A stretch of 38,515 nucleotides of DNA from Candidatus Omnitrophota bacterium (GTDB taxonomy: Bacteria > Omnitrophota > Gorgyraeia > Tantalellales > Tantalellaceae), in assembly GCA_018813285.1 (NCBI GenBank), contig JAHJBY010000060.1, positions 1-38,515 on the forward strand. The letters are read 5' to 3'. Positions 2 through 26,000 of this stretch are shown in pieces (position 1 is the stretch's first letter; the number at the start of each line of letters is the position of its first letter). Both the position numbers and the translations under genes were made by a program. The notes below the pieces were generated by a model. That model did no database searches, was not told the origin of the DNA, and saw only the letters and a program-made list of their open reading frames with translations.

Positions 2-3000
2 TTCAAACTTATCGACACCGGTTCTTGTTTTATAGGAGCTGAAGGTACCCTTCCCGTTTTCGGCGGGTTCTGGCGGCGGGACAGCAGGGGAGGGTTGACC
101 ATCTATCTTACAAAAGGTTTCTATGACAAATATGTCCTGACATGGTTTGAGAAAGAGAAAAATCCGGAAGACAAAAATCTTCAGTTCAGGGGCACGGTGG
201 GAATGCAGTTTCTGATCGATGAATTATTGAGAGCAAGCGGAAAGTATGAGTATAAGGATGCCGGCCCTATTTTGACACGGCTTAACGGCATGTTCAAGGT
301 GACCAGAAGAAGCCCTGAGTCTATTCCGTATAACGATTTGGATCATCTTCCGAACGAATACGTCGCGCTTCTTTTGGAAGTGACCGGACTTATTGAAGAT
401 GGTAACGAAACGGCCCTTGACTGGCTTATCCGGCGCCTTTCTTTCCACGATAATGATCCTTATAACCATTTTTACAAGGCTGTTTTGATTGCTCTCGGCA
501 TGATACGAAGTGATGAGGCCGCTGTTATGTCGAAGATAAAACAGGGTTTTCTCGATGAGCTTCGCGATTTAAAAACTATTTTAAAAGACAAGAATCACCC
601 CGCCAGCGGCGATGCGATTTGGGCTTTGGACGCGATCGGATGGGAACTCGTGAAAATTTACCCGGAACTTGTGAGATGGGAGATAATCCCCGCGTTAATA
701 GACGCCATGCGGGATAAAACCGATCTGATCTCCAGAAAAGCAGTCGAAAGCGTAGGGTCGATCGGCGCGGTGCTGGCACGGTCAGAAGAATATTCGAAGT
801 TCGTGAAGGGGCGGATAGTCCCGGCGTTGTTTGTCGCCCTGAAAGACGGGACCACCGCGGTTCGCGGGAGAGCAGTTTCTGCTATAAGCAATATCAGCAC
901 GAATTTAGTAAAAGAAAACGGGGAATTTGTGTTTAAAGTGGTCGTTCCCGTCTTGAACGATATTTCAAAAGATAGAAACCACCCGGCCAGCAATGATATA
1001 CCGGATGTTTTAATGGATATTGGTATGGTTCTGGCGAGAAAATACCTGGAGTTTGATAAGAAGGAAATTGCCCCTGTTTTTGTAACCTTCTTGAAAAAAG
1101 GAAAGCTCGGAGTTCGTTTGCCGTCCGCCTGGGTTTTAGGCGAGATCGGCAGAGACCTGGTTGTGGAAGGGGATGTAAGCTTTGTGAAAGAAAAAATAAT
1201 TCCTTATTTGATAGCCGCTCTGAAAGATGAGTCCGCCGGGGTACGGGCAAACGCGGCCGATGCGCTGGGTGAAATCGGAAAGGCGCTGGCGGCAAAAGAA
1301 GATTGGAAATTTGTAAAGGAAAGTGTAACTTGCGCGTTAATGGCTGCCTTGAAAGACGAGGAATACCCGGCCTGTGAGAAAGGGGCTGTGGCTCTTGGTA
1401 AGATCGGCAGGGTATTAAAGAGTGAACATCCGGAATATGTGAAGGAAGAAGTGATTCCCGTGTTGTTGAACGCCCTAAAAAGTAAAAATCTAAGGGTCCG
1501 CGCGGATGCGGCCCAGGGACTGCTTACGATAGGAGATGCAGAAGAGTTGAAAAAAGCTCTGCCCGCCGGGTATGAGACTATACTGAACACTTATGTTTTT
1601 ATATTCAAAGGTGAGGTAACGGTAAAAGACGGTGAGCTGGAAAAATGTGAGCTGCGCGAGATTATAAAATCAACGGAACACGCGACCCGGGTGCTATTGA
1701 CTATTTTGGAAACGGAAGATCCTTTTTTTCGCGATGATACGGTTCAAGCCTTACTTGACGAAGGTGACGGGGAAGAGCTGGAGAAAGTTTTGGGAGTCAA
1801 TTATAGGAAAATATTGGAAGGATATAAAGCGGTAAGAAGAGCGGATATTGAAGATGTTGTGGAAACGGGCAGGTATGTCATTCCCGCCGTGATAAACGAT
1901 ATAATGAAGGAGATTTTCTGGTTTGATGGCAGCGCGGCGTATTCTTTAAGCGGCCGGCTGCAGAAAGGAACGGGTCCTGATGAAGTGAAATCAGGATTAG
2001 ACAGGGGAGGATCTCTTGAAGGGGTTCTATCCGAATTTTTATACGGTCCCGCTTCTTTGGTCACACTGAAAACAGCGGGGAGAGAGATAAAACTGCTTCG
2101 GACGGATGAAGAAAAGATCGAGGAAGTTATGGAAAACCGGGAGCTGGATCCGGAACATGGATTAATCCAAAGAGTTTTACTGGCGTCTCCCTCCGTTAAA
2201 CATAATATCGCCGTTTTACGGAACATTTCCCGTGAATATCCCGATTTGTTCGATTTTTTGACAGAATACCCATTGTATTTTGACGCGGTAAGATGGTTAA
2301 CGGCAGGTGAATTAGAAAGATTGAACAATGAAAATGTGATAAATAAGGCCGTGATAACCGCGGTGTTAAGAGAGAAGATTAAATCGAGTACGGAGATTTC
2401 GGGACTCGGTGAGACGGGGGTGGAAGGAATCGACGGGGAAACGATCTGGAGGCTGTACATGGGGGAGAACAACCCCGAGGCGCTGGAAGAGAGGGCAAAA
2501 CAGGAGGCGGTAAAGGGGCTGTTGTTCAGCAGGGTTTTCTCGGAATGGATAAAGGATGTACGGTTGAAAAAGATCCTGGTCAAAAAAGTGTTAACGCGTC
2601 TGGATGACGGGGATTTAGGGTTCAGCGGCCTTTCTCTTGCCGCGAAAAAGAAAAAAGCGACCGGAATAGTCAATCAATTCGTCTCCGGGCATGAGATCGA
2701 GGATTTCCAGGAGGTCACCGCGGTCTACCGGGCGTTGCTTTTTGAAAAAGGAATATTTGACAGGAAAAAGAGTTTGCTGGAACTGTGTTTCGCGGAGGCA
2801 GGCGATGTTCTGGGAGAAATTGAATGGGAAGAAGATATGATGTTCTGGCATGTTGGCCCTGAAGGGACTTATGGCGACGCCAGGGACGCGATACAGGACT
2901 TTATAAATAAAAAATACGGCAAGGTTTTTGAATTACCTAATGTATGGGAAAGGTTAGAATACGAGGGAGGAGTCTGGTCTTATCGGGTATTGATAGATGG

Positions 3001-6000
3001 CAGGCCCAGGACGTTCATGTTTTTGGGTAGGGGCGGGGACGTGAATATTTTACTTGAGAGGCTTGTCTACAGGTCAGTGGAACTGGCAGTGATGAAAAAG
3101 TGCGGCCTTTATCGGGATTCTATGGAAACATTGGGCCTGCCGGAGAAAGGTGGGAAGCCGACTACGGACGGGTTCATCGAACGCCAGCTTCGCTATGCCG
3201 CGGAGAAGGGGATACTGGGTGATGACGCGGATATTTCTCTGCTGGAACGGGGCGCGAAAAAATCCTTGGCCTATCTTGTAAGTAAGGGACTTGCGCGGTA
3301 TTTGCAGAGCCGGGTGCTTTCGCGGCTGGGTTTCGGTTTCTCGGACGCTCAACGGTTCCTGCGGGAGACAACCGAGAACCGTATTTCGCCCAAATTGAAC
3401 GCCTTATCCAGCCGTCTTCTGGGCTACTGCCTGGTTAAAGAGGCGGCGCGGGAAGTGGAGAAAGGGGTTGCCGAAAAAGAAAAAGACGCCTATTCAATCC
3501 GGGAACAAAGAGACAAAGCGGCGGATCTTCTGGCACTGACGGGAGTCCTTGTACTGTTATTATTTCTGGTCGCACCGCGTGAAGCAATACCAATATCTTT
3601 TTCCGCGGTATTGACCGGCCTGCTGACGGGTTTCCGACTCTGGCAGGTATTCGCCTCGTACAGGAATATTAAGAGAATAGGGGCCGAAGTCCTGCCGCGA
3701 TTTGATGAAGGGTATACGGAGTATTTATCGGATACGGCGGAACTGTTGAACGAACGGGGCTATCCAAGTGTCGTGGATGAAATCGGGAAGAAGATCACGC
3801 TGAAGATCAGGGGGGTTCCGCCTATAACCGTTAAATTTCCCGATAAGAAAGAAACCGTGAAGCAGATGCTGAAAAAGAGGATGTTGGCGGTTTCGGAAAG
3901 CCGGATGAGGACGATCACACTTGTTCCCGGAATATCGCCGTATCTGTTTCCCTTTGTGCCTGTGGATGAACTAAATCATCTGTCCCTCCCGCCGGAGTAT
4001 TGTGGCGAGATCGGACAGATACCGTTTGTTTTGGGAAGAGCCGTCCGGAAAAGCAGAATAGCCGGACATATCCGGAAATTCATCCGGGATGAAAGAGGCA
4101 GACTCGGGAAACGTGCGGAAGGGGACGAGGAGCCTGAAACTTTAGAAAGCCCTGAAAATATCTCGAAGAGAACCGGTGGAAGCAAGAAGGATGCCGGTGT
4201 CATTGCGAGCAAAGCGACGCAATCTCAAAACGGAGAAGAAGGAGGGAGACAAAACTTAAATGGGATAACCGATAACGAAAAACAGGGGATAGAAGTGTTT
4301 TCTTTAGATTCAGGAAGACAGGTAGAAAAAAAGGGAGTTAACAAAGTCCAGATAGCCCGGAGTCCGGATACATTGCGGGATGGTGGTCTTTCCCAATGCG
4401 TAATTGTCCTGCTGTATGATTCAGAAGAGAAAACGGGCGCTTGCATGCATGTTGATTTAAGCCTTGAAAAATTTGCCGGGTTGGGTATTGATGCAATAGC
4501 AAATAAATATTTAGATTTCACCCTCCAGGGAATGGTCTTAAGAGGGGCAACAGCGGAGAATATTAGAGCTGTGATTGTATCCAATGAAGACTATCCGGGG
4601 AATGAAAGGAGTAATCAGCTTCGCGATTTTAACCGAGACGCGATGAAGAAGGAGCTACAGGACAGGGAGATCTATAACGGAGAATACAGAATAGAGAGCG
4701 AACATATTGGAGTATCTTTAGATTTAAGAGACGGTGGTATTTTTACAAGAACAATTAAGGGAGATAACGTCCATTTAGTTTCTTTTCCTTCTTCAATAAA
4801 TTGGCCGGAAACTGTTACCGCTTTGAGGGAAGCTAAGAAATGGTTCATAAAATACGATCCAAATCCTGATAATTGCGATGATCGCGCCATGGAAACGGCT
4901 GAGATCCTGGCCGCGCGTGGATTCAAAGCAAGGTATACCGTTCGTAAAGAGCCCAAATCGTCTTTAGGAGAAGATTTCCTCTTTTACGCGTATGCCGTGG
5001 TTGAGCGGGAAGGGAAAGAGTTCATAGTTGACATTTCAGCTGACGGAGCAGAGTTCGACGGGATCCGCGAACAATATGAGGACCAGGGCGTAGTTACTAT
5101 ACCGGTTGAGGATACTAAAAACGATCCTGAAGGTGGAAGATTCTGGATGTACACGACCGGTGAAATTGTTCAGGATAAAGTGATCAGTTCACCGGATATC
5201 TTCGGGCAAAGGGATGAGCTTCTTGAAGAAATAGTTGAGAGGTATGAGGAGACTGTAGATACGGAAGAAATCACCGCCGAGGAACAGACCGCACAGGCAC
5301 TTGGGATCACGGTCAAAGAAGTTCTTAGGATGTTGAAAAAACTGGGGAGAACATCAGCTCTCAAGCCGTACAGAGAACATTTTAAAAAATTGAAGGCAAG
5401 TCCATCCCCCATAGCGCAAAAGGAAACAGTTCGAGAAAACGGAGAGAATGCGCCCAGTAGTGTGATAGTACCGGATAAAATTAAGCTTGGTCGGATACGT
5501 TTTTCCAGGCGTAACAGTCCCGAACAGGGCCGGTTAGTGACGGAGCTTATGAATGAGGTAACGGAGGGATGGGGTAATGGGAATAGAGGCAAAAAATTTA
5601 CCGATGCCTGGCAAGAAATAGATGATGCTGTACTTGAAAGCGGAAAACGGGCCATAAAAGAGGAATCGGAGCGTATCCTTGAAAGCGCTAAAAAAATAAT
5701 ACCACGCCTTGTGAACGCGATGATCGGCGCGTCGAGATCAGGGAAAGACGAGAAAGTCGTTCTTGCCCTGGACCTCGGGCTCGGTGAAGGTGAGATAAAC
5801 AGGCTCATAAGGGAGCTGATCGATATGTTTCCTGCGCTTGAAAATAATAACGGGGACTTAAAAAGATTCTTCGGCAATCTCGAGATAATCAAGGGAGAGG
5901 GAGAGGCGCTTGCCGGCAGGGTAACCAATATCACAGATCCGAAAAAGGGATCCGTCAGGCCGGAAAACCTTATCGTGATAACGAAAAGTTCTAATGTGGA

Positions 6001-6331
6001 AAAAGGATATTTTAAGAATGTCGAGGGCCGTGCTGTTATCGCCGGTGTAGGTGACGCGGAATTTCCGGAGACGGCGTACCTGCCGCTCTTGGGGATAATG
6101 CTTTTCGCGGTTGGCAAGCATCTAAAGTGGGACAGGGATACGCTTCTTAAACATTATGAGATGATCCCGAACGCGCTTCCGGTAGGAGAATATACCGAAA
6201 AAGAACGCGGAAAACTGTTCGTTCAGGATGAAAAGACCCTTGTGATCAAGCTTATCCCTGACGCGGAAGAATTGAGTGATGACCTGGAAGAATTAATTGA
6301 GAACATCAAAATAGTCCTTTCCAAAGCGTAG
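2..6331 (+). CDS. Giant HEAT-repeat multidomain protein, 5'-truncated by window edge
   Basis: The frame is open from base 2, and the residues before the TTG at 95 look coding (for example LIDTGSCFIGAEGTLPVFGG). I therefore treat it as partial, with 2,109 residues visible, rather than starting at 95. Numbering from base 2: HEAT-type repeats of about 42 residues at roughly 185-520; a two-helix membrane hairpin at about 1173-1219; DELNH at about 1322-1326, which resembles a zincin HExxH with the first His replaced; a CheD-like segment with Cys1466 and His1483 in a SQCVIVLLYD...H context; and a transglutaminase-like segment starting NCDDRAMETAEIL (Cys1625) whose expected His position reads Tyr. 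The C-terminal 300 residues are an unrecognised alpha/beta domain. A palindromic-repeat fragment is translated in frame at 4199-4226. Only 6 bp separate it from the convergent XRE gene. The overall function is unknown; an envelope-anchored scaffold or enzyme is an inference. Confidence 0.85.
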   Translation, partial: FKLIDTGSCFIGAEGTLPVFGGFWRRDSRGGLTIYLTKGFYDKYVLTWFEKEKNPEDKNLQFRGTVGMQFLIDELLRASGKYEYKDAGPILTRLNGMFKVTRRSPESIPYNDLDHLPNEYVALLLEVTGLIEDGNETALDWLIRRLSFHDNDPYNHFYKAVLIALGMIRSDEAAVMSKIKQGFLDELRDLKTILKDKNHPASGDAIWALDAIGWELVKIYPELVRWEIIPALIDAMRDKTDLISRKAVESVGSIGAVLARSEEYSKFVKGRIVPALFVALKDGTTAVRGRAVSAISNISTNLVKENGEFVFKVVVPVLNDISKDRNHPASNDIPDVLMDIGMVLARKYLEFDKKEIAPVFVTFLKKGKLGVRLPSAWVLGEIGRDLVVEGDVSFVKEKIIPYLIAALKDESAGVRANAADALGEIGKALAAKEDWKFVKESVTCALMAALKDEEYPACEKGAVALGKIGRVLKSEHPEYVKEEVIPVLLNALKSKNLRVRADAAQGLLTIGDAEELKKALPAGYETILNTYVFIFKGEVTVKDGELEKCELREIIKSTEHATRVLLTILETEDPFFRDDTVQALLDEGDGEELEKVLGVNYRKILEGYKAVRRADIEDVVETGRYVIPAVINDIMKEIFWFDGSAAYSLSGRLQKGTGPDEVKSGLDRGGSLEGVLSEFLYGPASLVTLKTAGREIKLLRTDEEKIEEVMENRELDPEHGLIQRVLLASPSVKHNIAVLRNISREYPDLFDFLTEYPLYFDAVRWLTAGELERLNNENVINKAVITAVLREKIKSSTEISGLGETGVEGIDGETIWRLYMGENNPEALEERAKQEAVKGLLFSRVFSEWIKDVRLKKILVKKVLTRLDDGDLGFSGLSLAAKKKKATGIVNQFVSGHEIEDFQEVTAVYRALLFEKGIFDRKKSLLELCFAEAGDVLGEIEWEEDMMFWHVGPEGTYGDARDAIQDFINKKYGKVFELPNVWERLEYEGGVWSYRVLIDGRPRTFMFLGRGGDVNILLERLVYRSVELAVMKKCGLYRDSMETLGLPEKGGKPTTDGFIERQLRYAAEKGILGDDADISLLERGAKKSLAYLVSKGLARYLQSRVLSRLGFGFSDAQRFLRETTENRISPKLNALSSRLLGYCLVKEAAREVEKGVAEKEKDAYSIREQRDKAADLLALTGVLVLLLFLVAPREAIPISFSAVLTGLLTGFRLWQVFASYRNIKRIGAEVLPRFDEGYTEYLSDTAELLNERGYPSVVDEIGKKITLKIRGVPPITVKFPDKKETVKQMLKKRMLAVSESRMRTITLVPGISPYLFPFVPVDELNHLSLPPEYCGEIGQIPFVLGRAVRKSRIAGHIRKFIRDERGRLGKRAEGDEEPETLESPENISKRTGGSKKDAGVIASKATQSQNGEEGGRQNLNGITDNEKQGIEVFSLDSGRQVEKKGVNKVQIARSPDTLRDGGLSQCVIVLLYDSEEKTGACMHVDLSLEKFAGLGIDAIANKYLDFTLQGMVLRGATAENIRAVIVSNEDYPGNERSNQLRDFNRDAMKKELQDREIYNGEYRIESEHIGVSLDLRDGGIFTRTIKGDNVHLVSFPSSINWPETVTALREAKKWFIKYDPNPDNCDDRAMETAEILAARGFKARYTVRKEPKSSLGEDFLFYAYAVVEREGKEFIVDISADGAEFDGIREQYEDQGVVTIPVEDTKNDPEGGRFWMYTTGEIVQDKVISSPDIFGQRDELLEEIVERYEETVDTEEITAEEQTAQALGITVKEVLRMLKKLGRTSALKPYREHFKKLKASPSPIAQKETVRENGENAPSSVIVPDKIKLGRIRFSRRNSPEQGRLVTELMNEVTEGWGNGNRGKKFTDAWQEIDDAVLESGKRAIKEESERILESAKKIIPRLVNAMIGASRSGKDEKVVLALDLGLGEGEINRLIRELIDMFPALENNNGDLKRFFGNLEIIKGEGEALAGRVTNITDPKKGSVRPENLIVITKSSNVEKGYFKNVEGRAVIAGVGDAEFPETAYLPLLGIMLFAVGKHLKWDRDTLLKHYEMIPNALPVGEYTEKERGKLFVQDEKTLVIKLIPDAEELSDDLEELIENIKIVLSKA
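4199..4226 (+). repeat. In-frame fragment of palindromic repeat inside giant gene
   Basis: The stretch from gtcattgcgag to gcaatctc matches the left arm of the palindromic element at 15644-15679, with an 8-base difference in length. It is read as VIASKATQS within a low-complexity linker before the CheD-like segment, so the repeat has been absorbed into coding sequence without breaking the frame. Confidence 0.65.
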
Positions 6332-9717: not shown

Positions 9718-11427
9718 ATGAAAATTAAAACCTTGATTATGGCGGTCGTAGCCGTTTGTGTCATAATCCCGGTTGGATATTTCGCGTACCTGATTTTTCT
9801 GAATGGGTCGTCTTTCGCCCATAACGGAGATGTAAGCGTATGTAAGGCGGAAACCGGTAAATGGGAAACACTCGATGACAAATATACTCTAAAAAAAGGC
9901 GACAAATTAAAAACAGGCAAGGGAGCCAGTTGCAGTATTCTTCTTGGAAATACAGCTGCCGTTATGGTTATGGCTGATGAAAATACTGAAGTTGCGATAA
10001 CGTCCAAGGATCCGGTGGAACTCGATCTCATAGACGGAAAACTCCTCGCGAATCTTACAAGGCATACTCGACTGAAAAAATTCACCGTCACAACACCTGT
10101 AGGAGCCTGCGGCATCAGGGGAACCGGGTGGCAAGTCACGACGGATAAAGATTCAAAAACTACGGTGGAAGTGTTCGACGGCCGGGTCAAGTTCGGACAG
10201 ACAGAAATGCTTTACGAGCATGACCCCTATACCGTCCCGAATGATTTCGAACTTGATGTAACAAAAGATGAGACCACCCGGTTTGTCCGCAAAAAACTGG
10301 ATCCTGAGAAATATGCAAACTGGAATAAATGGGTTGGTAGATCATCTGAAGAACTGACAAAGATCAAAGTGATAAACTACATGGTCCAAAGCGAACCCGA
10401 TCCGTATCCCACGTGGCAGGAGGGCGTGTCCTACACGTCATGGCTACCCGGGAAATATTCGGGGCTTGAATCCGGTATATCTATTCCTGAAATGGCAAAG
10501 GAAACAAATGCGTCCTGGGTCAATCTGGTCACCACGTGGTACCAGGGCGACTCCCATTCGACTAAAATATACCGCCGACATGATAAAACCCCTACTGACA
10601 CAAGTTTGACTTCTGCCATACAGAAAATGCAGCGCTTGGGCATGCATATTATGCTGAGTCCGCATCTCAACCTTGAAACTTACTCTACGGGCACTTGGAG
10701 AGGGGAGATAGGGTTTACCGACAATGAGAATTGGGATGCATGGTTCGAAAGTTACTCGGCGTTTGTCCTGCATTACGCGCAAATGGCCGAAGACCTCGGT
10801 TTAGAAATATTCAACATCGGCACCGAGCTCTCCATGACAACCACCCAGCGGCCGGATAAATGGATCGGCCTCATCGCCAGGATAAGAGAGGTTTACTCGG
10901 GAAGGCTTGTTTACACAGCCAACTGGTTCGAGGAATATGAGAATATCCGTTTCTGGGGACATCTCGACTACGCGGGTATATCGGCGTATTTCCCGCTGTC
11001 AAGAAAAGATAAACCATCATATTTCGAGATTAAAAATGGCTGGAAACCGTGGCTTGAAAAAATCGAGGCGTGGCAAAAAACTCACGGCAAACCTGTGATC
11101 TTTCCGGAGATCGGATACAGAAGCGCCGCGGGAAGCGCGAAAATACCCTGGGCTCATAGATCAATGAGTGAAATAGACCTCCGGCAGCAATATAACTGCT
11201 ATAAAGCCACCTTCGAAACTTTTTGGGGAAAGCCTTGGTTCTACGGGTTTTACTGGTGGACCTGGAGAACAAATCCCCGCATCGGCGGCAAATATAACCG
11301 TGGATTCACCCCTCATGAAAAACCCGCCGGGAGCCTTATTAAGACGTGGTATCTAAAACCGGATCCTCACAAATACAAAAGCATTTTGGAACTGGCAAAA
11401 GATAAGGTTAAAAGCTCGATAAAATAG
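9718..11427 (+). CDS. Membrane-anchored FecR-domain / GH113-like glycoside hydrolase
   Basis: The product is 569 residues, with a strong ggaggga site before the ATG. Residues 5-29 are an uncleaved signal anchor. Residues 35-200 are a FecR-type domain (DKLKTGKGASCSILLG; TPVGACGIRGTGWQV; VEVFDGRVKFG). Residues 215-555 match the GH113 TIM-barrel pattern known from beta-mannanases: EGVSYTSWLPGKYSG, LVTTWYQGD, MLSPHLNLE, WRGEIGF, then the acid/base candidate Glu370 in NIGTELS and the nucleophile candidate Glu464 in FPEIGYRS. The tail carries FYWWTW. The predicted location is periplasmic or outer side of the inner membrane. Likely substrate: a mannan-type or other beta-linked polysaccharide. The fusion suggests a hydrolase tethered through a ligand- or polysaccharide-binding FecR module. 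Confidence 0.88.
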   Translation: MKIKTLIMAVVAVCVIIPVGYFAYLIFLNGSSFAHNGDVSVCKAETGKWETLDDKYTLKKGDKLKTGKGASCSILLGNTAAVMVMADENTEVAITSKDPVELDLIDGKLLANLTRHTRLKKFTVTTPVGACGIRGTGWQVTTDKDSKTTVEVFDGRVKFGQTEMLYEHDPYTVPNDFELDVTKDETTRFVRKKLDPEKYANWNKWVGRSSEELTKIKVINYMVQSEPDPYPTWQEGVSYTSWLPGKYSGLESGISIPEMAKETNASWVNLVTTWYQGDSHSTKIYRRHDKTPTDTSLTSAIQKMQRLGMHIMLSPHLNLETYSTGTWRGEIGFTDNENWDAWFESYSAFVLHYAQMAEDLGLEIFNIGTELSMTTTQRPDKWIGLIARIREVYSGRLVYTANWFEEYENIRFWGHLDYAGISAYFPLSRKDKPSYFEIKNGWKPWLEKIEAWQKTHGKPVIFPEIGYRSAAGSAKIPWAHRSMSEIDLRQQYNCYKATFETFWGKPWFYGFYWWTWRTNPRIGGKYNRGFTPHEKPAGSLIKTWYLKPDPHKYKSILELAKDKVKSSIK

Positions 11428-17005: not shown

Positions 17006-17809
17006 CTATTTTTTTCTATATTTTTCTATCAACAATGGAATGATTTCATGCGCGTTTACGAGCATGTTTGCTTCACTTTCTTCGAACAAAAAAGGCCTTA
17101 ATGTCTCGGCTTGTTTCGATAATTCTTCTTTGGTAAGATCTTTTACCCTATCGGAGATCATCTCCAGTGGATCTTTGTTTAGACCAAGGTTTTTTAGAAC
17201 ATCTCCACTAATGGGATATTTATTTGAAAGCATGAACATAATATCATATAAATGCCGTCCACGCGTCTTTTTGTTCAATGCATCTATCTTATTCGCAAAC
17301 AAAGTACCTTTTTCAGTACAAATGCACGGATAAAATTCACCAAATCCGGAAATTACCTGGGTTTCCGTTTTTATTTTCCATTCAGTCTTATTCAGTTCAA
17401 CTTTTATAATGATCCCTTCTTTTTTTGAATATTTCGATACCACATTGTAAGTTTTTTCTACCTCAGGAAAAAGCAAATTTGACACATACAGATTTTCCCG
17501 GTAAGAAAACTCAATCTGCGTTTCAAGCCCGATCCTTTTTAATTCTACTTTTATTTCTTTTTGAAGCTTTTCAAATTCTTTTCGAGTAATATTTTTTACA
17601 TCGAAATCTAAATCCTCAGAAAACCTTTTAAGACCGCAAACTAATCTCAGGTATGTCCCTCCTGTAAAATAAAATCTCTTTCCCTCTTCATTTTTATAAA
17701 GTCCTTTCAGAATAAGCACCTGAAGATATTCCCTTAAAATACCTCGAGTTTTCGCGGGAGGCATCCCTCCGATCTTTGCCTGCTCGACCAGTGAATCATA
17801 TGTAAGCAT
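17006..17809 (-). CDS. AbiEii-family nucleotidyltransferase toxin
   Basis: The 267-residue protein has the AbiEii/DUF1814 signature: YFTGGTYLRLV (Gly50-Gly51-Thr52) followed by KRFSEDLDFDV (Ser64, Asp66, Asp68), then a long alpha/beta body with VELNKTEW and FANKIDALNKKTRGRHLYDIMFML. Known members are type IV toxins that use nucleotides to block growth and act in phage abortive infection. It overlaps the AbiEi gene by 14 bp. Confidence 0.95.
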   Translation of the reverse strand: MLTYDSLVEQAKIGGMPPAKTRGILREYLQVLILKGLYKNEEGKRFYFTGGTYLRLVCGLKRFSEDLDFDVKNITRKEFEKLQKEIKVELKRIGLETQIEFSYRENLYVSNLLFPEVEKTYNVVSKYSKKEGIIIKVELNKTEWKIKTETQVISGFGEFYPCICTEKGTLFANKIDALNKKTRGRHLYDIMFMLSNKYPISGDVLKNLGLNKDPLEMISDRVKDLTKEELSKQAETLRPFLFEESEANMLVNAHEIIPLLIEKYRKK

Positions 17810-18404
17810 AAAACTCCTTTAAATCAAGATTATACAATTTGGCGTATTTATTTATCACGTTTTTTTTGAACCCTAAAATTACATCTCTATCCAGTCGCTC
17901 TTTCCTGAGATCAAATTTACTATTTCGGTATTTCTTGAAGTATAAATAATCAACAAGCGCCTTTTCAGGCTCCGCGATAAGAATATCATAAACACCATGT
18001 TTCTCTACGTAATACCCCTTAAAAACATTTGTATTAACTGTTCGATACGTGAAAAGACCGTGATCATTTTTAAACCTTCGTGTGGGCTTTGTCGTAATAG
18101 AAGTAACCGCCATTGCAACTTCAGGAATTACGTTATAACCGGATAGAGCCGTTTCCAACGAAACATAGGAAGGACTGTACAGCTTGTTAGCAACATATAC
18201 GTCCGGAATATTGAGGTTAACAGGATATGTAAGCTCATACAGCCCTCTTTTAAGAGCATAAATCCACCCTTTCTTACTCCATCTATAAATCATTTTTCTC
18301 AGATTAAGTTTTTTTTCTTTCGGAAAAAATGACAGTAAGTCATTGTAAGTAAAGATGTGAAATTTATGCCGTACTAATGTTCTGTAAACATCCTTGAACT
18401 TCAT
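17796..18404 (-). CDS. AbiEi-family antitoxin / transcriptional repressor
   Basis: The 202-residue protein has an N-terminal winged helix (FTYNDLLSFFPKEKKLNLRKMIYRWSKKGWIYALKRGLYEL) and the AbiEi C-terminal domain (SPSYVSLETALSGYNVIPE; ILIAEPEKALVDYLYF). AbiEi represses its own operon rather than binding the toxin tightly. An inverted repeat directly before the ATG and a good promoter fit that role. Confidence 0.94.
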   Translation of the reverse strand: MKFKDVYRTLVRHKFHIFTYNDLLSFFPKEKKLNLRKMIYRWSKKGWIYALKRGLYELTYPVNLNIPDVYVANKLYSPSYVSLETALSGYNVIPEVAMAVTSITTKPTRRFKNDHGLFTYRTVNTNVFKGYYVEKHGVYDILIAEPEKALVDYLYFKKYRNSKFDLRKERLDRDVILGFKKNVINKYAKLYNLDLKEFYAYI

Positions 18405-18594: not shown

Positions 18595-21500
18595 TTATGC
18601 CGCGGAAAGGACACGCCAGGCTTCTCTTAGGGCTTCCTCTAGACGCTGTATCATCTCCCGCGGAGATAACGCGCGCGGCAGGATTATGTTTATGGTGGAT
18701 TTTTCACCGTTGCGGATACTCCCCAACCAGTTGTTGAGTATCTTCGAAAGAGAAAAAACACTTTCTCTTGAATCCGGCCCGACCGGGATCCGTATCGAAA
18801 TATTACCCCGAAGTTCGCTCTTTAATTTATTGCGCAGTTCTTCAGCCTCTTCTTTATCACGGACAGCATCCGTCGCTATGGCCATATATTCCCCGGCCGG
18901 CAATTCCTGCGTGCCAAGACCCTGAAGATATAAATCTCGTATCATCCATGCTTTTGTTTGAGGGTTGATCTCATTCATCTTAAATGTACGTGCCATCTCC
19001 TGAATCTCTCGTTCAGTTATCATCATTATTTCAATATTCTCCGGCAAACCAAGCGCCTTTTTGACATCAAGCTTACCAAGACTTTGGATCAGTCCCCTGT
19101 CTTCCTCCTTAACGTCCGTAACCACAAGCGTAAAGGGAACATCCTTTCCCAATCTGCTCAGCCTGTTCAGCGCGAGAGTGACGTCCGGCGCGTTTTTGAA
19201 AACCTCGACAGGCACGCAAAAGTGCAGCGCGGATACCCCCCGCGTCCTGCGGCAGGCCCGGCTGAGGTTGCTGACGGCAGAGATCAATCCGCTCCCTCTT
19301 ATTTTTTTATCAAGCGCGCCGAAAGCCTGCTGAATCCCGACCTCGCTTGTCTCATGAAGGACGGATTTGATCTCGTTTTTTTGGGATTTATATACTGCCC
19401 CAATCAAAGGATCGTACTGGTAAGTCTTCCGATAAAAAGGAGCCATACTAAAGTTGTCAATATTTATCGAGTTCTGTTTTACCAGTCTAATACCCAATTT
19501 TTGTTCAAGCTTTTTAATTATTCGATTATCTATCCATTCCAAATTGCTTCCTAATCCTTTCGGCACGCTATAAAAAAATCTTCCTCCATCAGGACATAAA
19601 TACTTTAAAATTGAGCTAATAAATGGCATTAGCTGGCCTTCTATGATTCTATCTTCTGGCATGAATGCCCAAAATGCATCCTTTTCATCCACTACTCCCA
19701 AGGCCGCTACATAATCAAAACGTTTAGACTGCAATTTTTCATAAGTACCATACACATCAATCTCCTGTTCCAATACAAATCTTTTATGCAGGTTCACCAA
19801 GTATTTCAATGTCGTTCCATCAATATCAATCACACTCACATCAAGTCCCAATTTCGCGAGCAAAATTGGAAAATAGTCTAAAGAACCTGGCCCCACCACA
19901 AGCGCGCTCTTGCCACGCACCAGCCCCATACCCATGACCTTCCGCGCGATTTCGTGTTTTATCTCATCATCAAATATAACATCACCCTCGACCTTGTTTA
20001 TCTCGTCGATAATATTCACGATTTCTTCGCGGGTAATGGGGGCAAGCTGTTGAATATTTTCCCTGATAGCCTCTGCCTCTTCCTCATTCAAACTCGCCTT
20101 CTTCAACTCCGGTTTTTCGTCTAGGATCTCTTCTTTTAGTATGGACAGTATCTCCTGAAAATAAAAAGGTTTCTCTACTATGGCGACAATATTTTTGTTC
20201 TTGTACCGTTTCTTTGACATAATAGTCGCTTCGCTGCTGGTTATGACAAATTTTGTTTCGGAATTTTTCGCGGTTATTTTTTTCAGTATTTTGCTTAAGT
20301 TGTGTTTACCTTCCACGATGTCATCGGTTACGACCAGGACGGGGTTGTTTGAGACAAGTTCTCTTTCCAATTTCCAGATCGAGTCTATCACGACTATCGG
20401 CATATCACCCAGTTCTTCCTTGATAACCCCGGCTAACTCGCCGGCTTCTGAGAATGAGTTGTTGATGATGAAGATGGAACCTGACTTTTCTTCTGCCGCG
20501 GCCTGTTCCCGGGTTTGATACCGCGCCAAAACTTTCTCATAAACTTCGATTTGTTTTCGCCTCTCTTCCCTCACGATCCGGGCGGCATTTTCGTAAAGTT
20601 CTCTAATCTCCATTGTTTTGACATTTTTATACCTCTTTTTGATGTTCGCGAACAGGTTGTCATAACCGCTAAAAGCGTATAGAGAAATGTCCCGGTTCCC
20701 GGATCCGGCTTTCCCGGCGGCGAGGTCCAATATCGTAAATATACCTTTTTCTTCTATTTGCGCGTCTTTCTCAAAAGGAAGATTGCAATCGACAAACAGG
20801 ACATCAACCCGTTTTTTCTGTAAATACTCGATCGCGTCCTTAACGTACACGCAATGCTTGATATTTCCCGCTTTAGTGGCTGTTCCGAACTTGTCCAAAA
20901 GGTAATCAGCAACGTCTAAATTGTCCACCACCAACAGCACTTTGATCTCTTCCGGCGGCAACGGTTTTTCTTTTAACCCATTTTCCCGAGCGGCTCGCCA
21001 TTTCGAAAGGGCTTTTTCGTATTCCTCGATTTGTCTTTGTCGATACTTTTGGATTCGAGATATCAGTTCCTCAACACTATCCCCTGTTTTTTCAAATATA
21101 TCTATTTTTTTGAGAATTTTTTGGTCGTATCTCTCGTGTATGTTTTCCTTTATCCGATAGTCGGGCATGCCTGATATTGCCAACATCCGCGGGATATCTC
21201 TAAGTTTATCGTCAAAAAGGCGACAAATCGCAGGCGTTTCAGATTCTTTAAGCGGCACTGTCACGTCGAAGACAAGGCAATAAATGTCTTCCTTATCCAA
21301 CATGTCTACGGCTTCGGTATGAGTTTCGGCGCCAAAAAAAGCATATTCTTCCGGTGAAAATCTTGATTCTGAAAGGTCCTTGAGTGCCCGGTCATCATCA
21401 AAAAATAATACCCTGAGTTTTTCCGGCTCCTCCGGCGGTAATCCTGCCCCTTCTCGTTCTTCCTGCTTTTTAAGCCATTTTTTAATGCCTGGCCTTTTAA

Positions 21501-24500
21501 TAAGCTTGTCATATCTTTCCGCTATACGCTTTACAGCGAGGTTTATTTTTTTGTTCCTCCCGCGTTTTTTTCGTACTCTATCTTTTTTCCCCTCAATGTA
21601 TCGCGCCAGATCTCCCTGACGCAAACTCTTTTCAAAACCGAGTATACGGGAAACAATGTCTCCCGCCGCTTTTACCCCCGGCGCTGCCCATTCTTCGGGT
21701 AATATCGGTAAACCGGCTGTATTTTTCAACTTCCGAATAAAGAGATCGATGTAGGTTTCCCATTTCTCCGGGCCAAATTTTTCTTTCAGGTCCAGCAAGT
21801 ACTCTTCAACCGGGATAAAGGCGTTCAATCCGGCGGGCGGCGCTTCCGCTTTACCTTCGAGCCAGTCATCAAAGAGTTTGTCGTCAGCAAAGATTAAGAA
21901 AAAACTCTCATCCATACAATCAATAACCCCGGAAACGGCGATTTTTTCAAACGATCTGTCAAAAGTGACGAGAAGCGTGCTGCGGAATGCCGCGTCGTCC
22001 ATGTCCAGTAATTTTTCCTTGAACGATAAGATGAATTTTTTATCGAAGAATTTTCCCATGTTCTCACGGAACACCGCAAGCAAGGCTTCCTCTAAACAAG
22101 AGATCCTTTTTTTGCTTCGCTGAGTTTCATCAATGAGGAATTCAGCGTTCAATCCGTCAGAAAAGTAGGTTAATTGTTCACTCGCGCGCCATATTCCGGG
22201 ATAACCTATGACAGGCCAAAAATCCAACTCCGCCAGGCCTTCTCTGAGTTTGGGACCGCTGCAGTAGCTGAACTCGCCCCTGTAGATCCCTTCAATGATA
22301 AGATCCACGTTATGCGCGTTTCTTGAGCCAAAATAAGGATCTACCAGAACGCGCGCTTTTTGAGCGCGCCCTGCCCGTAAATACGCGCCACTTGCCGCGT
22401 CAGGTTGAACGCGTATATATTCCTGGTCAAACTTTTTCTCAAATGACAATATTTCTTCGTTTGTCACAGTACCGCTGACCAAGATGACACTGCCGGTAAA
22501 ACCCTCAGGCCCTGTCTGCCCTATCGTAACATTGGTCGAGGCAAGCAGTTTTTTATCCTTAAGCTTTTCGGCTTTTTTGACAAGTTTCTTACTGAAATCT
22601 CCGGTATCCGGCCGGACCTGTATGATATAAAGTTTCCCATCCAGGAAACCGAACTCTATATCCAGCGGCGTGCCTATCTCCTTTTCCAGCTTGGCGGCGA
22701 CTCTATAAACCTCTCTGGCTTCTTCTTCCTTTAGAGGAGGGCAGTGTCGTGAAGACGCTTTATCAGCCTCCGGCGCGGCGGGGTACAATTCGTTCCAGAG
22801 CCCGAGCATCTCCTCCGGGTTTTCTGACCGGCAATATCTTTTTCCCTTATAGACAAACTCGTACGGCATCTCAAGAAACGCGGTATCATACCGAAAATCT
22901 TCCGGATTCTCTCTGTCAAATGTATAACTCGCGGTGTTGGCGTAATTGCCCCGCACGGCACTACTCGCGTCTCCGCAAACCGCTTCGATCACAAGATGAT
23001 TATGGAAATTCGATCTTATCGTTCCTGACTTTTGAAAATGTAGGAATGGCTGGATCACTACGCCAAAACCTTCCCCAGCGTCCAGAAGGTTCGGGATTCC
23101 CTCAACTCTTTTCTCGCTATTCTGTGCGATCCAGATCGTCTCTACCGCCTGATCAAAAATCTCCCGCACCGCGCACGGGACAAGCCGCCTGTCTTTTTTC
23201 TTCGGTGAGATAAATATTCCGGCAAGTTTCCTGATAAAAGAATCCTCCCATTTCCCGCTTGAACGGCTAATAATGGGGTCCTTCAGGCCGGTTGTACGTT
23301 CGTTTATCAATGAATTCAGTTTTTCGGGAAAAGTGAATCTCTGTATCAGTTCTTCCAGCCGGTCCAATGTTTGCCGGCTTACGGCCCCTTTTATTCGCGT
23401 ATCTTTTCGTACGAGACGATTTCCTTTACTGACCAATTTATGATTCGCCTTTATAAATTCACCCCATACTTCTTGTATAGTGATATACCGTGACGGAGGA
23501 ATGAAAAACTCTATTTTTTCCGCCAGTTTTTCAATTATCCGTGACCATGAACCCTTGCCGCCGAAAACTCCCGCGTTATCTTCAAAAATTTCGCGTATAT
23601 TCTCCCCTTCCTTTCGCGGTTTCCTGACACTCTTCTCGCCCTTCTTTGCTCTCTTCCCGCTCAGAACCTTCTGCGTTATTTCGTGTTTTATCTCATCATC
23701 AAATACTGTCTCCCCTTCAACCTCGTTTATCTCGCCAACAATCGCCTCGATCTCATCCTGGGTTATTTCTGGAGGTCTTTTAGCCCGGATCATATCGGCG
23801 GGGATGAGTTTTTCACGTCTTTCGCGGAAATATTCGACAACCCTTCTCTGGACAAGCATCGCCGCGACGGGGTTGACGATATTGTCGTTTACTCCGGCGC
23901 TACCCGCGTGGTCGATATCCGGCATACTCTCGACTTTATCCTGCGGAACCGCGATAAGCCGGCCGTCCTCCTGCCGTTCTATCGCGCCATAATGCCCATG
24001 AAAATGGGGCAGTAGCTGCAATGCCGCCGCCAGGACAATATTTGATGTCACATCCCTGCCCAACGTCTTGAACCAGTATTCTGCCACAGATGATGTCCTG
24101 GGGAACATCCCCTGTATATTATCCATATCAACATTAAGTGACATCAATTCTTTCCCGAAATAAAAAATTTCATTACCCGGCAGAAGAGGCTTACTCATCC
24201 CGACAAGTCTTACATTAATATTCGGCATTCTGTCACTTTTGCGCAGATTATATAGAATCTTTTGCAAAAGCTTGCCGACAGACCCCTTAAAACCGGTATC
24301 CAGAAACAGGATATTCTCCTGTCCGTCAAAGGTGTCCTGTGTTATGCCAAAACCTTCCAAGAACTCCCTCTGCAAACTTTCTTCTCCCGGCAATTTTTCA
24401 ATAAACTCTCGGCTTCCCGGAAATAAGATGACTTTTTCCTCATAAAGTGTGCCGGCCAATAGCGGCCTCAAAGCGTCATAAAATATCTCCGCATCACGTC

Positions 24501-25566
24501 CCGCGATCAAGATCCTGTCATAGCGGCCCGGGAATGTCTTTAATATCTCCTCCACCAACTGTTCTACAAATAGCAGAAGAAATTCCAGTTCCCAAAAAGT
24601 CACCGAGTTCAAGTATGAATCGCATTCCTCCTCCCCGAAGGCCTGTTTCGCGCCTTCGGCGATATCCTCCACAGAAAACCCTCCCGTTTCCAGAGGATCG
24701 GGCCTTCTTTTCCAGTCGAGCAGAAGCTCTTTGACGCGTTCTGAGCTCCTGATGCTATTTCTGACTTCTGTTGTGCCGTCCGCGTCCGCCGCTCTGTAGA
24801 ACCTCTCCTCCTTCTCATCCTGTAGTTTCCATACAAAGCGTGACCTTTTTTCCACGTCAAAGAAGATTTTGGAAAAGTTTTTGTAATGGCCCCGGCTGTC
24901 CTTAGCTATCAGAGCGGGGCGCATCAAATCGAGAAACTCCTTTTCTATTTCTGTGAGTTCTCTATCCGCGATTACATGTTCATTTGTCAGAAAAAGAAGC
25001 TCAAAGGCTTGGGCAACAAGATCGTTGAAGATGATATTCCTCTTTTTTCTTTTGTTCCCGAGCCGTTCCGCGGCATCTTTGTAAGAGGTTAACCCGAGAT
25101 ACAGCTCCACGATCCTGTCATCGGCGAGGATCTTTTCCATCAGCCCCCGGTATTTCGCGGGACGCAGTTTCTCTTCTCTCTGCATAAGTATCTCGAAATC
25201 CTCGTGCGTAACCGCGCGGATAAGCGCGAGGTCGTCATCGGCGGTTTCCTGCCGCATGAGGTACCTGCCGGAAGGAAGGATAAGCGCCAGGGCTCTATAG
25301 TTGTCCAGAAGATCTTGATATTTTTCGGAATGGGCGATCCATATAAGACGGTTTTTCCGGTAAAGCGAGGCAAGAAATTCCCGCTGGACATCGCACTTTT
25401 CCGTAAATGTCCATGCACTGAGAAAAGACGGCCTGCCTGCCTCCGGCCGGACCGCCCATGCCGCGTTCACGCACAAGCAGTTAAATAGGAACAGCCCCGC
25501 GACAAACACGGAAGTTGTTTTCAGAAAAATATTTCTCATGATCTTTGAAAACTTAAACCGGTTCAC
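18595..25566 (-). CDS. Giant exported multidomain protein: PPDK-type ATP-grasp, three receivers, methyltransferase-like
   Basis: The product is 2,323 residues. The GTG start has aggag 6 bases upstream. Residues 1-38 are a signal peptide ending NAAWA before VRPEAGRPS. About 348-430 carries RILIAGRDAEIFYDALRP and ILFLDTGFKGSVG, weakly reminiscent of COG5610-type hydrolases. About 700-985 is a pyruvate phosphate dikinase/PEP synthase ATP-grasp part (GFGVVIQPFLHF; PLDIEFGFLDGKLYIIQVRP); I see no swivelling phosphohistidine domain. Three receivers follow: about 1382-1489 (FFDDD, Asp in VFDVTVP, SG), 1540-1665 (FVDCNLP) and 1695-1817 (VVTDDI, EKPF). About 1884-2000 is a Rossmann methyltransferase-like domain (ALVVGPGSLDYFP; VSVIDID). 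The last 250 residues are an unrecognised domain. A 30-residue motif occurs at about 600 and 1848. No function can be assigned. Confidence 0.85.
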   Translation of the reverse strand: MNRFKFSKIMRNIFLKTTSVFVAGLFLFNCLCVNAAWAVRPEAGRPSFLSAWTFTEKCDVQREFLASLYRKNRLIWIAHSEKYQDLLDNYRALALILPSGRYLMRQETADDDLALIRAVTHEDFEILMQREEKLRPAKYRGLMEKILADDRIVELYLGLTSYKDAAERLGNKRKKRNIIFNDLVAQAFELLFLTNEHVIADRELTEIEKEFLDLMRPALIAKDSRGHYKNFSKIFFDVEKRSRFVWKLQDEKEERFYRAADADGTTEVRNSIRSSERVKELLLDWKRRPDPLETGGFSVEDIAEGAKQAFGEEECDSYLNSVTFWELEFLLLFVEQLVEEILKTFPGRYDRILIAGRDAEIFYDALRPLLAGTLYEEKVILFPGSREFIEKLPGEESLQREFLEGFGITQDTFDGQENILFLDTGFKGSVGKLLQKILYNLRKSDRMPNINVRLVGMSKPLLPGNEIFYFGKELMSLNVDMDNIQGMFPRTSSVAEYWFKTLGRDVTSNIVLAAALQLLPHFHGHYGAIERQEDGRLIAVPQDKVESMPDIDHAGSAGVNDNIVNPVAAMLVQRRVVEYFRERREKLIPADMIRAKRPPEITQDEIEAIVGEINEVEGETVFDDEIKHEITQKVLSGKRAKKGEKSVRKPRKEGENIREIFEDNAGVFGGKGSWSRIIEKLAEKIEFFIPPSRYITIQEVWGEFIKANHKLVSKGNRLVRKDTRIKGAVSRQTLDRLEELIQRFTFPEKLNSLINERTTGLKDPIISRSSGKWEDSFIRKLAGIFISPKKKDRRLVPCAVREIFDQAVETIWIAQNSEKRVEGIPNLLDAGEGFGVVIQPFLHFQKSGTIRSNFHNHLVIEAVCGDASSAVRGNYANTASYTFDRENPEDFRYDTAFLEMPYEFVYKGKRYCRSENPEEMLGLWNELYPAAPEADKASSRHCPPLKEEEAREVYRVAAKLEKEIGTPLDIEFGFLDGKLYIIQVRPDTGDFSKKLVKKAEKLKDKKLLASTNVTIGQTGPEGFTGSVILVSGTVTNEEILSFEKKFDQEYIRVQPDAASGAYLRAGRAQKARVLVDPYFGSRNAHNVDLIIEGIYRGEFSYCSGPKLREGLAELDFWPVIGYPGIWRASEQLTYFSDGLNAEFLIDETQRSKKRISCLEEALLAVFRENMGKFFDKKFILSFKEKLLDMDDAAFRSTLLVTFDRSFEKIAVSGVIDCMDESFFLIFADDKLFDDWLEGKAEAPPAGLNAFIPVEEYLLDLKEKFGPEKWETYIDLFIRKLKNTAGLPILPEEWAAPGVKAAGDIVSRILGFEKSLRQGDLARYIEGKKDRVRKKRGRNKKINLAVKRIAERYDKLIKRPGIKKWLKKQEEREGAGLPPEEPEKLRVLFFDDDRALKDLSESRFSPEEYAFFGAETHTEAVDMLDKEDIYCLVFDVTVPLKESETPAICRLFDDKLRDIPRMLAISGMPDYRIKENIHERYDQKILKKIDIFEKTGDSVEELISRIQKYRQRQIEEYEKALSKWRAARENGLKEKPLPPEEIKVLLVVDNLDVADYLLDKFGTATKAGNIKHCVYVKDAIEYLQKKRVDVLFVDCNLPFEKDAQIEEKGIFTILDLAAGKAGSGNRDISLYAFSGYDNLFANIKKRYKNVKTMEIRELYENAARIVREERRKQIEVYEKVLARYQTREQAAAEEKSGSIFIINNSFSEAGELAGVIKEELGDMPIVVIDSIWKLERELVSNNPVLVVTDDIVEGKHNLSKILKKITAKNSETKFVITSSEATIMSKKRYKNKNIVAIVEKPFYFQEILSILKEEILDEKPELKKASLNEEEAEAIRENIQQLAPITREEIVNIIDEINKVEGDVIFDDEIKHEIARKVMGMGLVRGKSALVVGPGSLDYFPILLAKLGLDVSVIDIDGTTLKYLVNLHKRFVLEQEIDVYGTYEKLQSKRFDYVAALGVVDEKDAFWAFMPEDRIIEGQLMPFISSILKYLCPDGGRFFYSVPKGLGSNLEWIDNRIIKKLEQKLGIRLVKQNSINIDNFSMAPFYRKTYQYDPLIGAVYKSQKNEIKSVLHETSEVGIQQAFGALDKKIRGSGLISAVSNLSRACRRTRGVSALHFCVPVEVFKNAPDVTLALNRLSRLGKDVPFTLVVTDVKEEDRGLIQSLGKLDVKKALGLPENIEIMMITEREIQEMARTFKMNEINPQTKAWMIRDLYLQGLGTQELPAGEYMAIATDAVRDKEEAEELRNKLKSELRGNISIRIPVGPDSRESVFSLSKILNNWLGSIRNGEKSTINIILPRALSPREMIQRLEEALREAWRVLSAA

Positions 25567-25622
25567 ATAAAACTCCTACAGACGCATTTCTACCTTTCTT
25601 TTTTCATACAAAAACACACCTT

Positions 25623-25650: not shown

Positions 25651-25703
25651 CTATTTATTATTTTATTGTAACGGAATTTTGAAAAAAAGATGAAGATTTG
25701 TTA

Positions 25704-25905
25704 AGAACAAACATTGGGTATGATCCGTACGGGCCTTTGATGAAGCGAGAAAGCCAGGTATTATAAAAAAGTAAGTTGTTCCGCGTGATCTATTTTCAGT
25801 AAAAACAAATTACTTTTTTATAATTTTCGAGCGAATCATAGAGCAAGGCCTGCCGCTGGGAGCAGGCCGAGCGTGCCCGGTAGGATCATACCCAATGGTT
25901 GTTCT
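25704..25905. repeat. 202-bp long inverted repeat element
   Basis: Arms at 25704-25734 and 25875-25905 match at 27 of 31 positions. Inside, tattataaaaaagtaa and its complement near 25810-25824 form a second stem. An asymmetric hairpin ggcctgc/gcaggcc (25847-25868) sits in the right half. It occupies the 446-bp gap between two minus-strand genes and has no ORF. Confidence 0.75.
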
Positions 25906-25914
25906 GCGAATAGC

Positions 25915-26000
25915 TGAAGAGAGCTATCAGCTTTCAGCTAAAAAGAGGAGCACGGGGCAGAGTGCAAGACACAGAACGCAAAACGCAATACGAAAAAACT
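25915..26000. repeat. Patchwork of short tandem words
   Basis: Short words are repeated two or three times with drift: agctatcagctttcagct, then gaacgcaaaacgcaatacg, then gacatctgaaatct. No ORF. It lies just downstream of the cation efflux stop codon. Confidence 0.55.

What the first reader, a model, noticed from the sequence alone, without database searches (positions are those of the whole stretch)
18595..25566. Exported giant protein carrying normally cytoplasmic signalling and metabolic domains
A clear signal peptide precedes an ATP-grasp (PEP synthase-type) part, three receiver domains and a methyltransferase-like domain. ATP, aspartyl phosphorylation and SAM are cytoplasmic resources, so export poses a puzzle. 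Either the leader acts as a membrane anchor with the body inside, or the domains are used as structural or binding modules. I know of no described system with this architecture.
Basis: partly seen in the sequence, partly recalled or inferred. Interest (0 to 1): 0.72.

Follow-up and report, generated by a model that had tools for sequence, protein, structure and literature searches.

The report
Exported mosaic giant protein of Omnitrophota
A 2,323-residue protein of an uncultured Omnitrophota bacterium has an export signal at its front, a shared tail at its end and, in between, signalling and enzyme domains that normally work inside cells; it belongs to a lineage-specific family of such giants, possibly made to act inside a partner or prey cell.

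Summary
One uninterrupted 2,323-codon gene (25566..18598, minus strand) with a GTG start and ribosome-binding site begins with a Sec-type signal peptide. It carries a PEP-synthase-type ATP-grasp domain (Pfam PPDK_N, E = 4.6e-18), three divergent receivers and a weak methyltransferase-like module. The genome is Candidatus Omnitrophota.

It is not a lone oddity. It belongs to an unnamed family: signal peptide, a ~190-residue N-terminal module with no Pfam or PDB match, a variable middle, and often a shared C-terminal module. Of 36 open frames carrying the N-module, 34 have a signal-peptide-like leader. ATP-grasp, receiver 1 and several P-loop sites in relatives look intact, so "purely structural" is unlikely. 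Charge bias (32/34) argues against an anchor with the body inside.

New here: strong homologues of its modules were found almost only inside other giants, and a short C-terminal tail (strand, Pro, helix, terminal Ala) recurs across giants with different C-terminal domains.

Best explanation: a Sec-exported, domain-shuffled protein acting outside its producer, perhaps in a prey or host cytoplasm. Delivery is inferred, not shown. Omnitrophota giants with signalling and metabolic domains have been noted before (PMC12419801, PMC10066038).

The parts
18598..25566 (-). Whole gene: 2,323-aa mosaic giant protein, GTG start (18595-18597 is the stop codon)
25573..25577 (-). AGGAG ribosome-binding site, 6 nt before the GTG start
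   Evidence: sequence
25453..25566 (-). Sec-type signal peptide, aa 1-38, predicted cleavage AWA|V
   Evidence: sequence; similar leaders in 34 of 36 N-module frames; Nin-Cout charge bias 32/34
24775..25449 (-). N-terminal module (profile match aa 49-246) at the mature N-terminus, no Pfam/NCBIfam match
   Evidence: AF2 pLDDT 79, no PDB fold match
23767..24759 (-). aa 270-600, module with invariant AGRDAE and DTG motifs, unknown, enzyme-like; homologues only in long open frames (1693-3715 aa)
23641..23766 (-). Linker repeat copy 1 (aa 601-642, ITQDEIEAIVGEINEVEGETVFDDEIKHEI..)
   Evidence: sequence; (internal match E 3e-9)
22561..23565 (-). PEP-synthase-type ATP-grasp domain (PPDK_N), aa 668-1002; K671, R768, D969, E971, Q983, R985 present
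22138..22560 (-). Conserved extension of the ATP-grasp module (aa 1003-1143, motif VLVDPxxGSxxAHN)
   Evidence: phosphohistidine-domain homology tested and not supported
21067..21420 (-). Receiver 1: D1390-D1392, D1434, S1465, K1486/1487 all present
20572..20949 (-). Receiver 2: D1548-N1549, D1593, S1633; Lys doubtful
20122..20484 (-). Receiver 3: acidic pair replaced by Asn-Asn; D1748 and K1799-Pro kept
19912..20037 (-). Linker repeat copy 2 (aa 1844-1885), before the methyltransferase-like module
19345..19935 (-). Methyltransferase-like module, aa 1878-2074 (VVGPG, VIDID motifs)
18598..19326 (-). C-terminal module, aa 2081-2323, shared with relatives whose middles differ
18598..18687 (-). 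C-terminal tail (last 30 aa): strand, Pro, helix, terminal Ala-Ala, shared across giants with different C-domains
25700..25915 (-). 216-bp dispersed repeat with inverted ends upstream of the gene; 95% identical copy upstream of the C75 paralogue, two more elsewhere
   Evidence: copies on C41/C87 not next to giants

Best explanation
A member of an Omnitrophota family of exported mosaic giants. Sec recognises the leader, signal peptidase removes it, and the mature protein begins with the conserved N-module. The middle is a swappable cargo of phosphoryl-transfer and signalling domains with at least partly intact active sites. The C-module ends in a tail shared by giants with unrelated cargo, so the tail (perhaps with the N-module) serves sorting or assembly rather than catalysis. 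Because the cargo needs ATP (and SAM if the methyltransferase is real), the protein most likely works in another cell's cytoplasm, or in a space opened to it, during an epibiotic or predatory contact. Shown: domains, leader conservation, module sharing, tail. Inferred: cleavage, crossing of the outer membrane, delivery, target.
For: Signal-peptide-like leaders in 34/36 N-module frames and Nin-Cout charge bias 32/34. ATP-grasp residues kept in this protein and two relatives with leaders; intact receiver 1, and intact P-loops in AAA and MutS relatives. Cargo varies while the ends are kept. Strong homologues of the modules lie almost only in giant or contig-truncated frames. A tail matrix trained without own-genome sequences ranks own-genome giants at the top of 562 frames; 35/52 long vs 19/634 shorter ORFs carry the tail. 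A secretin is encoded. An Omnitrophota predator shows open cytoplasmic contact with its archaeal victim (PMC13153191).
Against: No localisation, proteomic or interaction data; the lifestyle of this species is unknown. No translocation domain was recognised; the ATP/ADP translocase search was empty but so were its controls. Receivers 2 and 3 are partly degenerate. The N-module is patchy (15 of 285 phylum genomes). The predation example is a different, distant Omnitrophota.
Confidence: 0.42

Rival explanations
1. Exported but acts in the periplasm or at the cell surface, using ATP and metabolites from lysed neighbours; the tail sorts it to the envelope, and nothing is delivered into cells.
For: A Sec leader alone leads to the periplasm; no translocation domain found. 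Published proposals for Omnitrophota giants are surface adhesins or weapons (PMC10066038).
Against: Extracellular ATP and SAM are normally scarce; receiver and histidine-kinase ATPase modules are normally cytoplasmic (established knowledge).
Confidence: 0.28
2. Exported, but the enzyme-like domains are used as binding or structural modules without catalysis.
For: Receivers 2 and 3 and the methyltransferase copy are divergent; individual receiver scores are weak.
Against: ATP-grasp Lys, Arg, Asp, Glu, Gln, Arg kept here and in two relatives; receiver 1 complete; four of four midasin-type Walker A motifs and the MutS P-loop intact in relatives.
Confidence: 0.15
3. The leader is an uncleaved membrane anchor and the body stays in the cytoplasm.
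For: Would resolve the cofactor puzzle without delivery.
Against: Positive charges precede, not follow, the hydrophobic core (32/34); AxA-type site; conserved mature N-terminus right after it.
Confidence: 0.1
4. True start downstream of the leader, or a decaying gene.
For: The C75 paralogue has its leader split between two frames near a G-run.
Against: Good ribosome-binding site at the GTG; leader conserved in the family; 2,323 codons open.
Confidence: 0.03

Closest known systems
Gigantic Omnitrophota proteins with Skillet-clade Lipocone domains (PMC12419801)
   Same: Same phylum; large proteins combining signalling (kinase-receiver), methylase and metabolic domains; predation proposed
   Different: No TM segments beyond the leader and no lipocone domain recognised here; the passages read do not describe this N-module, C-module or tail
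Omnitrophota giant ORFs of Seymour et al. 2023 (PMC10066038)
   Same: Same phylum, very long proteins of unclear function, some thought to be at the surface
   Different: Those are over 20 kb, often with TM helices and adhesin domains; this is 7 kb with enzyme-type domains
PEP synthase / pyruvate phosphate dikinase and relatives (PigC, rifampicin phosphotransferase)
   Same: ATP-grasp PPDK_N domain with conserved nucleotide-site residues
   Different: No recognisable PEP/pyruvate barrel and no supported phosphohistidine domain; exported
Polymorphic toxins and other exported mosaic effectors
   Same: Conserved trafficking ends and swappable domains
   Different: The variable part is in the middle, both ends are kept; no toxin domain or immunity gene identified
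C-terminal sorting signals (T9SS CTD, PEP-CTERM class)
   Same: A conserved C-terminus shared by exported proteins with unrelated bodies
   Different: No TM segment or beta-sandwich domain; strand-Pro-helix-Ala pattern; no sorting machinery identified

Membership tests
Exported N-module family (defined here) | Signal peptide followed directly by the N-module | tested here: met
Exported N-module family (defined here) | Ala-ending C-terminal tail | tested here: met
PEP synthase / PPDK | ATP-grasp nucleotide-binding domain with conserved residues | tested here: met
PEP synthase / PPDK | Phosphohistidine (PEP-utilizers) domain | tested here: not met
   no Pfam match; hhalign probability 0.4%
PEP synthase / PPDK | PEP/pyruvate-binding barrel | tested here: not met
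   no PEP-utilizers_C match
Two-component response regulator | Receiver with acidic pair, phospho-Asp, Ser/Thr, Lys | tested here: met
   receiver 1 complete; 2 and 3 partial
Two-component response regulator | Cognate histidine kinase and cytoplasmic location | not testable with these tools
   relatives carry HATPase_c, partnership unknown
SAM-dependent methyltransferase | Class I motifs and significant family score | tested here: inconclusive
   window copy below threshold; homologues 2.2e-5
Seymour giant ORFs | ORF longer than 20 kb | tested here: not met
   6,972 bp
Lipocone giants | Lipocone domain and TM segments | tested here: not met
   no TM-like segment beyond the leader; no such Pfam match; no dedicated lipocone profile searched
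Polymorphic toxin | Variable C-terminal toxin domain | tested here: not met
   the C-terminus is the conserved part
Polymorphic toxin | Adjacent immunity gene | not tested
   neighbours not studied for immunity function

The most novel reading that the evidence does not exclude
The Ala-ending tail is a sorting or translocation signal of an undescribed Omnitrophota export system that sends domain-shuffled, ATP-using enzymes and signalling modules into other cells.
Probability: 0.22. Interest if true: 0.88.

Novelty: new variant of a known kind. Interest (0 to 1): 0.6.

Why it matters
Omnitrophota giants have been described as poorly annotated and of obscure function. A defined anatomy (signal peptide, N-module, cargo, tail) gives a handle: it predicts which proteins belong together, turns the question why a receiver or MutS-like domain is exported into a testable localisation question, and, if the tail is a signal, points to an unknown secretion or delivery route in an uncultured phylum with predatory members.

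Tried and rejected
Phosphohistidine reading of aa 1003-1143: it looked like a mobile His domain with a conserved His, but profile comparison with the genome's own PEP-utilizers domains gave probability 0.4%, so dropped. Metallopeptidase (HExxE) reading of the N-module: the motif is lost in several members. Fold of the N-module: fair model (pLDDT 79) without PDB match. C-module model too poor (pLDDT 62) for its Rossmann-like hits, best E 3e-3, to count. The 216-bp upstream repeat as a shared regulator of giants: two of four copies are elsewhere. Phage or plasmid origin of the N-module: no match. The first genome-contig query had no conserved stretch. A first run of the tail statistics skipped loci below L100 through an id-formatting error; one search is the corrected one. 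The ATP/ADP translocase search gave nothing, but neither did its controls. The L051 row of the ATP-grasp alignment was taken from a wrong stretch and is ignored.

Full report
What was checked. The gene runs from a GTG at 25566 to the stop at 18595 on the minus strand, 2,323 codons without a stop. AGGAG lies 6 nt before the GTG; the overlapping ATG is followed directly by TGA. The leader has a basic n-region, a hydrophobic core and an AWA cleavage site at residue 38. Pfam finds PPDK_N at 668-1002 (E 4.6e-18) and Response_reg above its cut-off when stretches are summed. Singly the three receivers are weak. The methyltransferase-like segment is below threshold in this copy, but homologues of the same module hit Methyltransf_12 and Methyltransf_23.

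Where it is. The window is one whole contig (C9) of a 1.76-Mb, 97%-complete genome. Relatives found by an alignment search carry Omnitrophota titles, among them Candidatus Omnitrophus magneticus SKK-01.

A family, not an oddity. A paralogue on contig C75 shares only the first ~260 and the last ~250 residues (43-44% identity) and has a histidine-kinase ATPase in the middle. Within the taxonomic family, 11 of 19 genomes have the N-module by single-sequence search; in a phylum sample it is in 15 of 285 genomes, all of the same class. The C-module is in 4 of 19. Pfam of the middles: HATPase_c, Response_reg, PPDK_N, a GWD-type phosphohistidine domain followed by PPDK_N, AAA_5/midasin, VWA, methyltransferases, GNAT, MutS_V, SNF2-related, lysine-decarboxylase-like, metallophosphoesterase, HpcH aldolase. 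Nearly all are cytoplasmic domain types.

Is the leader real? Of 36 distinct open frames with the N-module, 33 have a start codon followed by a hydrophobic segment just before it by a simple hydrophobicity rule, and one more (L050) has the segment although the rule assigned no start: 34 in all. The two exceptions are a frame that lacks the first part of the module (L049) and the C75 paralogue, whose leader is split between two frames near a G-run. Net charge is higher before than after the core in 32 of 34 scored leaders, the pattern for an exported body. SignalP was not available, so cleavage is inferred.

Are the domains alive? ATP-grasp: K671, R768, D969, E971, Q983 and R985 match the nucleotide-site pattern of PPDK (residue roles from memory) and are kept in two relatives with leaders, in L036 and L038. 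Receiver 1 has all phosphorylation residues; receiver 2 has D-N in place of the acidic pair; receiver 3 has N-N. In relatives, all four Walker A motifs of a midasin-like array and the MutS P-loop are intact. So catalysis is likely kept in a good part of the family.

Modules circulate among giants. The aa 270-600 module has homologues only in open frames of 1,693-3,715 aa; the methyltransferase-like module only in frames of 3,533-4,870 aa; the ATP-grasp module in frames of 984-2,655 aa for strong hits (the 984-aa one is cut by a contig end). These searches reach only moderately distant relatives.

The tail. The last ~30 residues follow a pattern: hydrophobic strand, Pro, then a helix ending in Ala, even where the preceding domain differs. 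A position matrix trained on two tail types recognises the third (AUC 0.89-0.96). Trained without own-genome sequences, it puts the window protein first among 562 own-genome frames, and most of the next ranks are giants or contig-cut C-termini. By a simple rule, 35 of 52 frames of 1,000 aa or more carry it against 19 of 634 shorter ones (p 3e-32; own genome 5 of 13 against 10 of 456, p 2e-5). Caveats: the rule was drawn after seeing tails, many long frames are related and were fetched by homology, and the p-values ignore this.

Mechanism. Sec export is the best-supported step. A secretin exists in the genome. Beyond that, delivery into another cell is the reading that best reconciles intact ATP-dependent domains with export; Velamenicoccus shows open cytoplasmic contact with its victim (PMC13153191), and giants in this phylum are already linked to predation (PMC10066038, PMC12419801). 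Whether this species preys on anything is unknown.

Novelty. The general idea of Omnitrophota giants with signalling and metabolic domains is published in a few sentences. The N-module, the module pool found almost only in giants and the shared tail were not found described in the papers searched, a library limited to open-licence PMC papers.

Noticed in passing
window 2-6331 (+): A second giant, 5'-cut by the contig start: 2,109+ codons, HEAT repeats, ending in the same kind of tail (..IVLSKA).
   Followed up: partly
window 25700-25915: 216-bp dispersed repeat with inverted ends, upstream of both N-module giants of this genome and at two other intergenic or contig-end places; MITE-like.
   Followed up: partly
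L004 (C75), about 9850-9960: The paralogue's leader is split between two reading frames near a G-run; assembly error or real frameshift.
   Followed up: no
window 17006-18404 (-): Two adjacent ORFs that look like an AbiE-type toxin-antitoxin pair, from memory only.
   Followed up: no
L122 288-9200 (-): 2,971-aa giant with signal peptide and tail in the same genome carrying a PEP-utilizers_C domain and an HPr domain of the PTS.
   Followed up: partly
L158 306-9269 (-): 2,988-aa exported giant with nucleotidyltransferase and phosphoglucomutase domains, next to another tail-bearing C-terminus.
   Followed up: partly
L187 (C59) and L192 (C64): Open frames of more than 6,666 and 4,727 codons that run off the sequence held.
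   Followed up: no
L060: An N-module giant on a contig titled Nanoarchaeota; probably a binning mistake, or transfer.
   Followed up: no
L051 2468-8749 (-): Exported giant with a glucan-water-dikinase-like order: phosphohistidine domain, then PPDK_N.
   Followed up: no
L050, L055: Exported relatives carrying MutS_V and SNF2-related ATPase domains, normally acting on DNA.
   Followed up: partly
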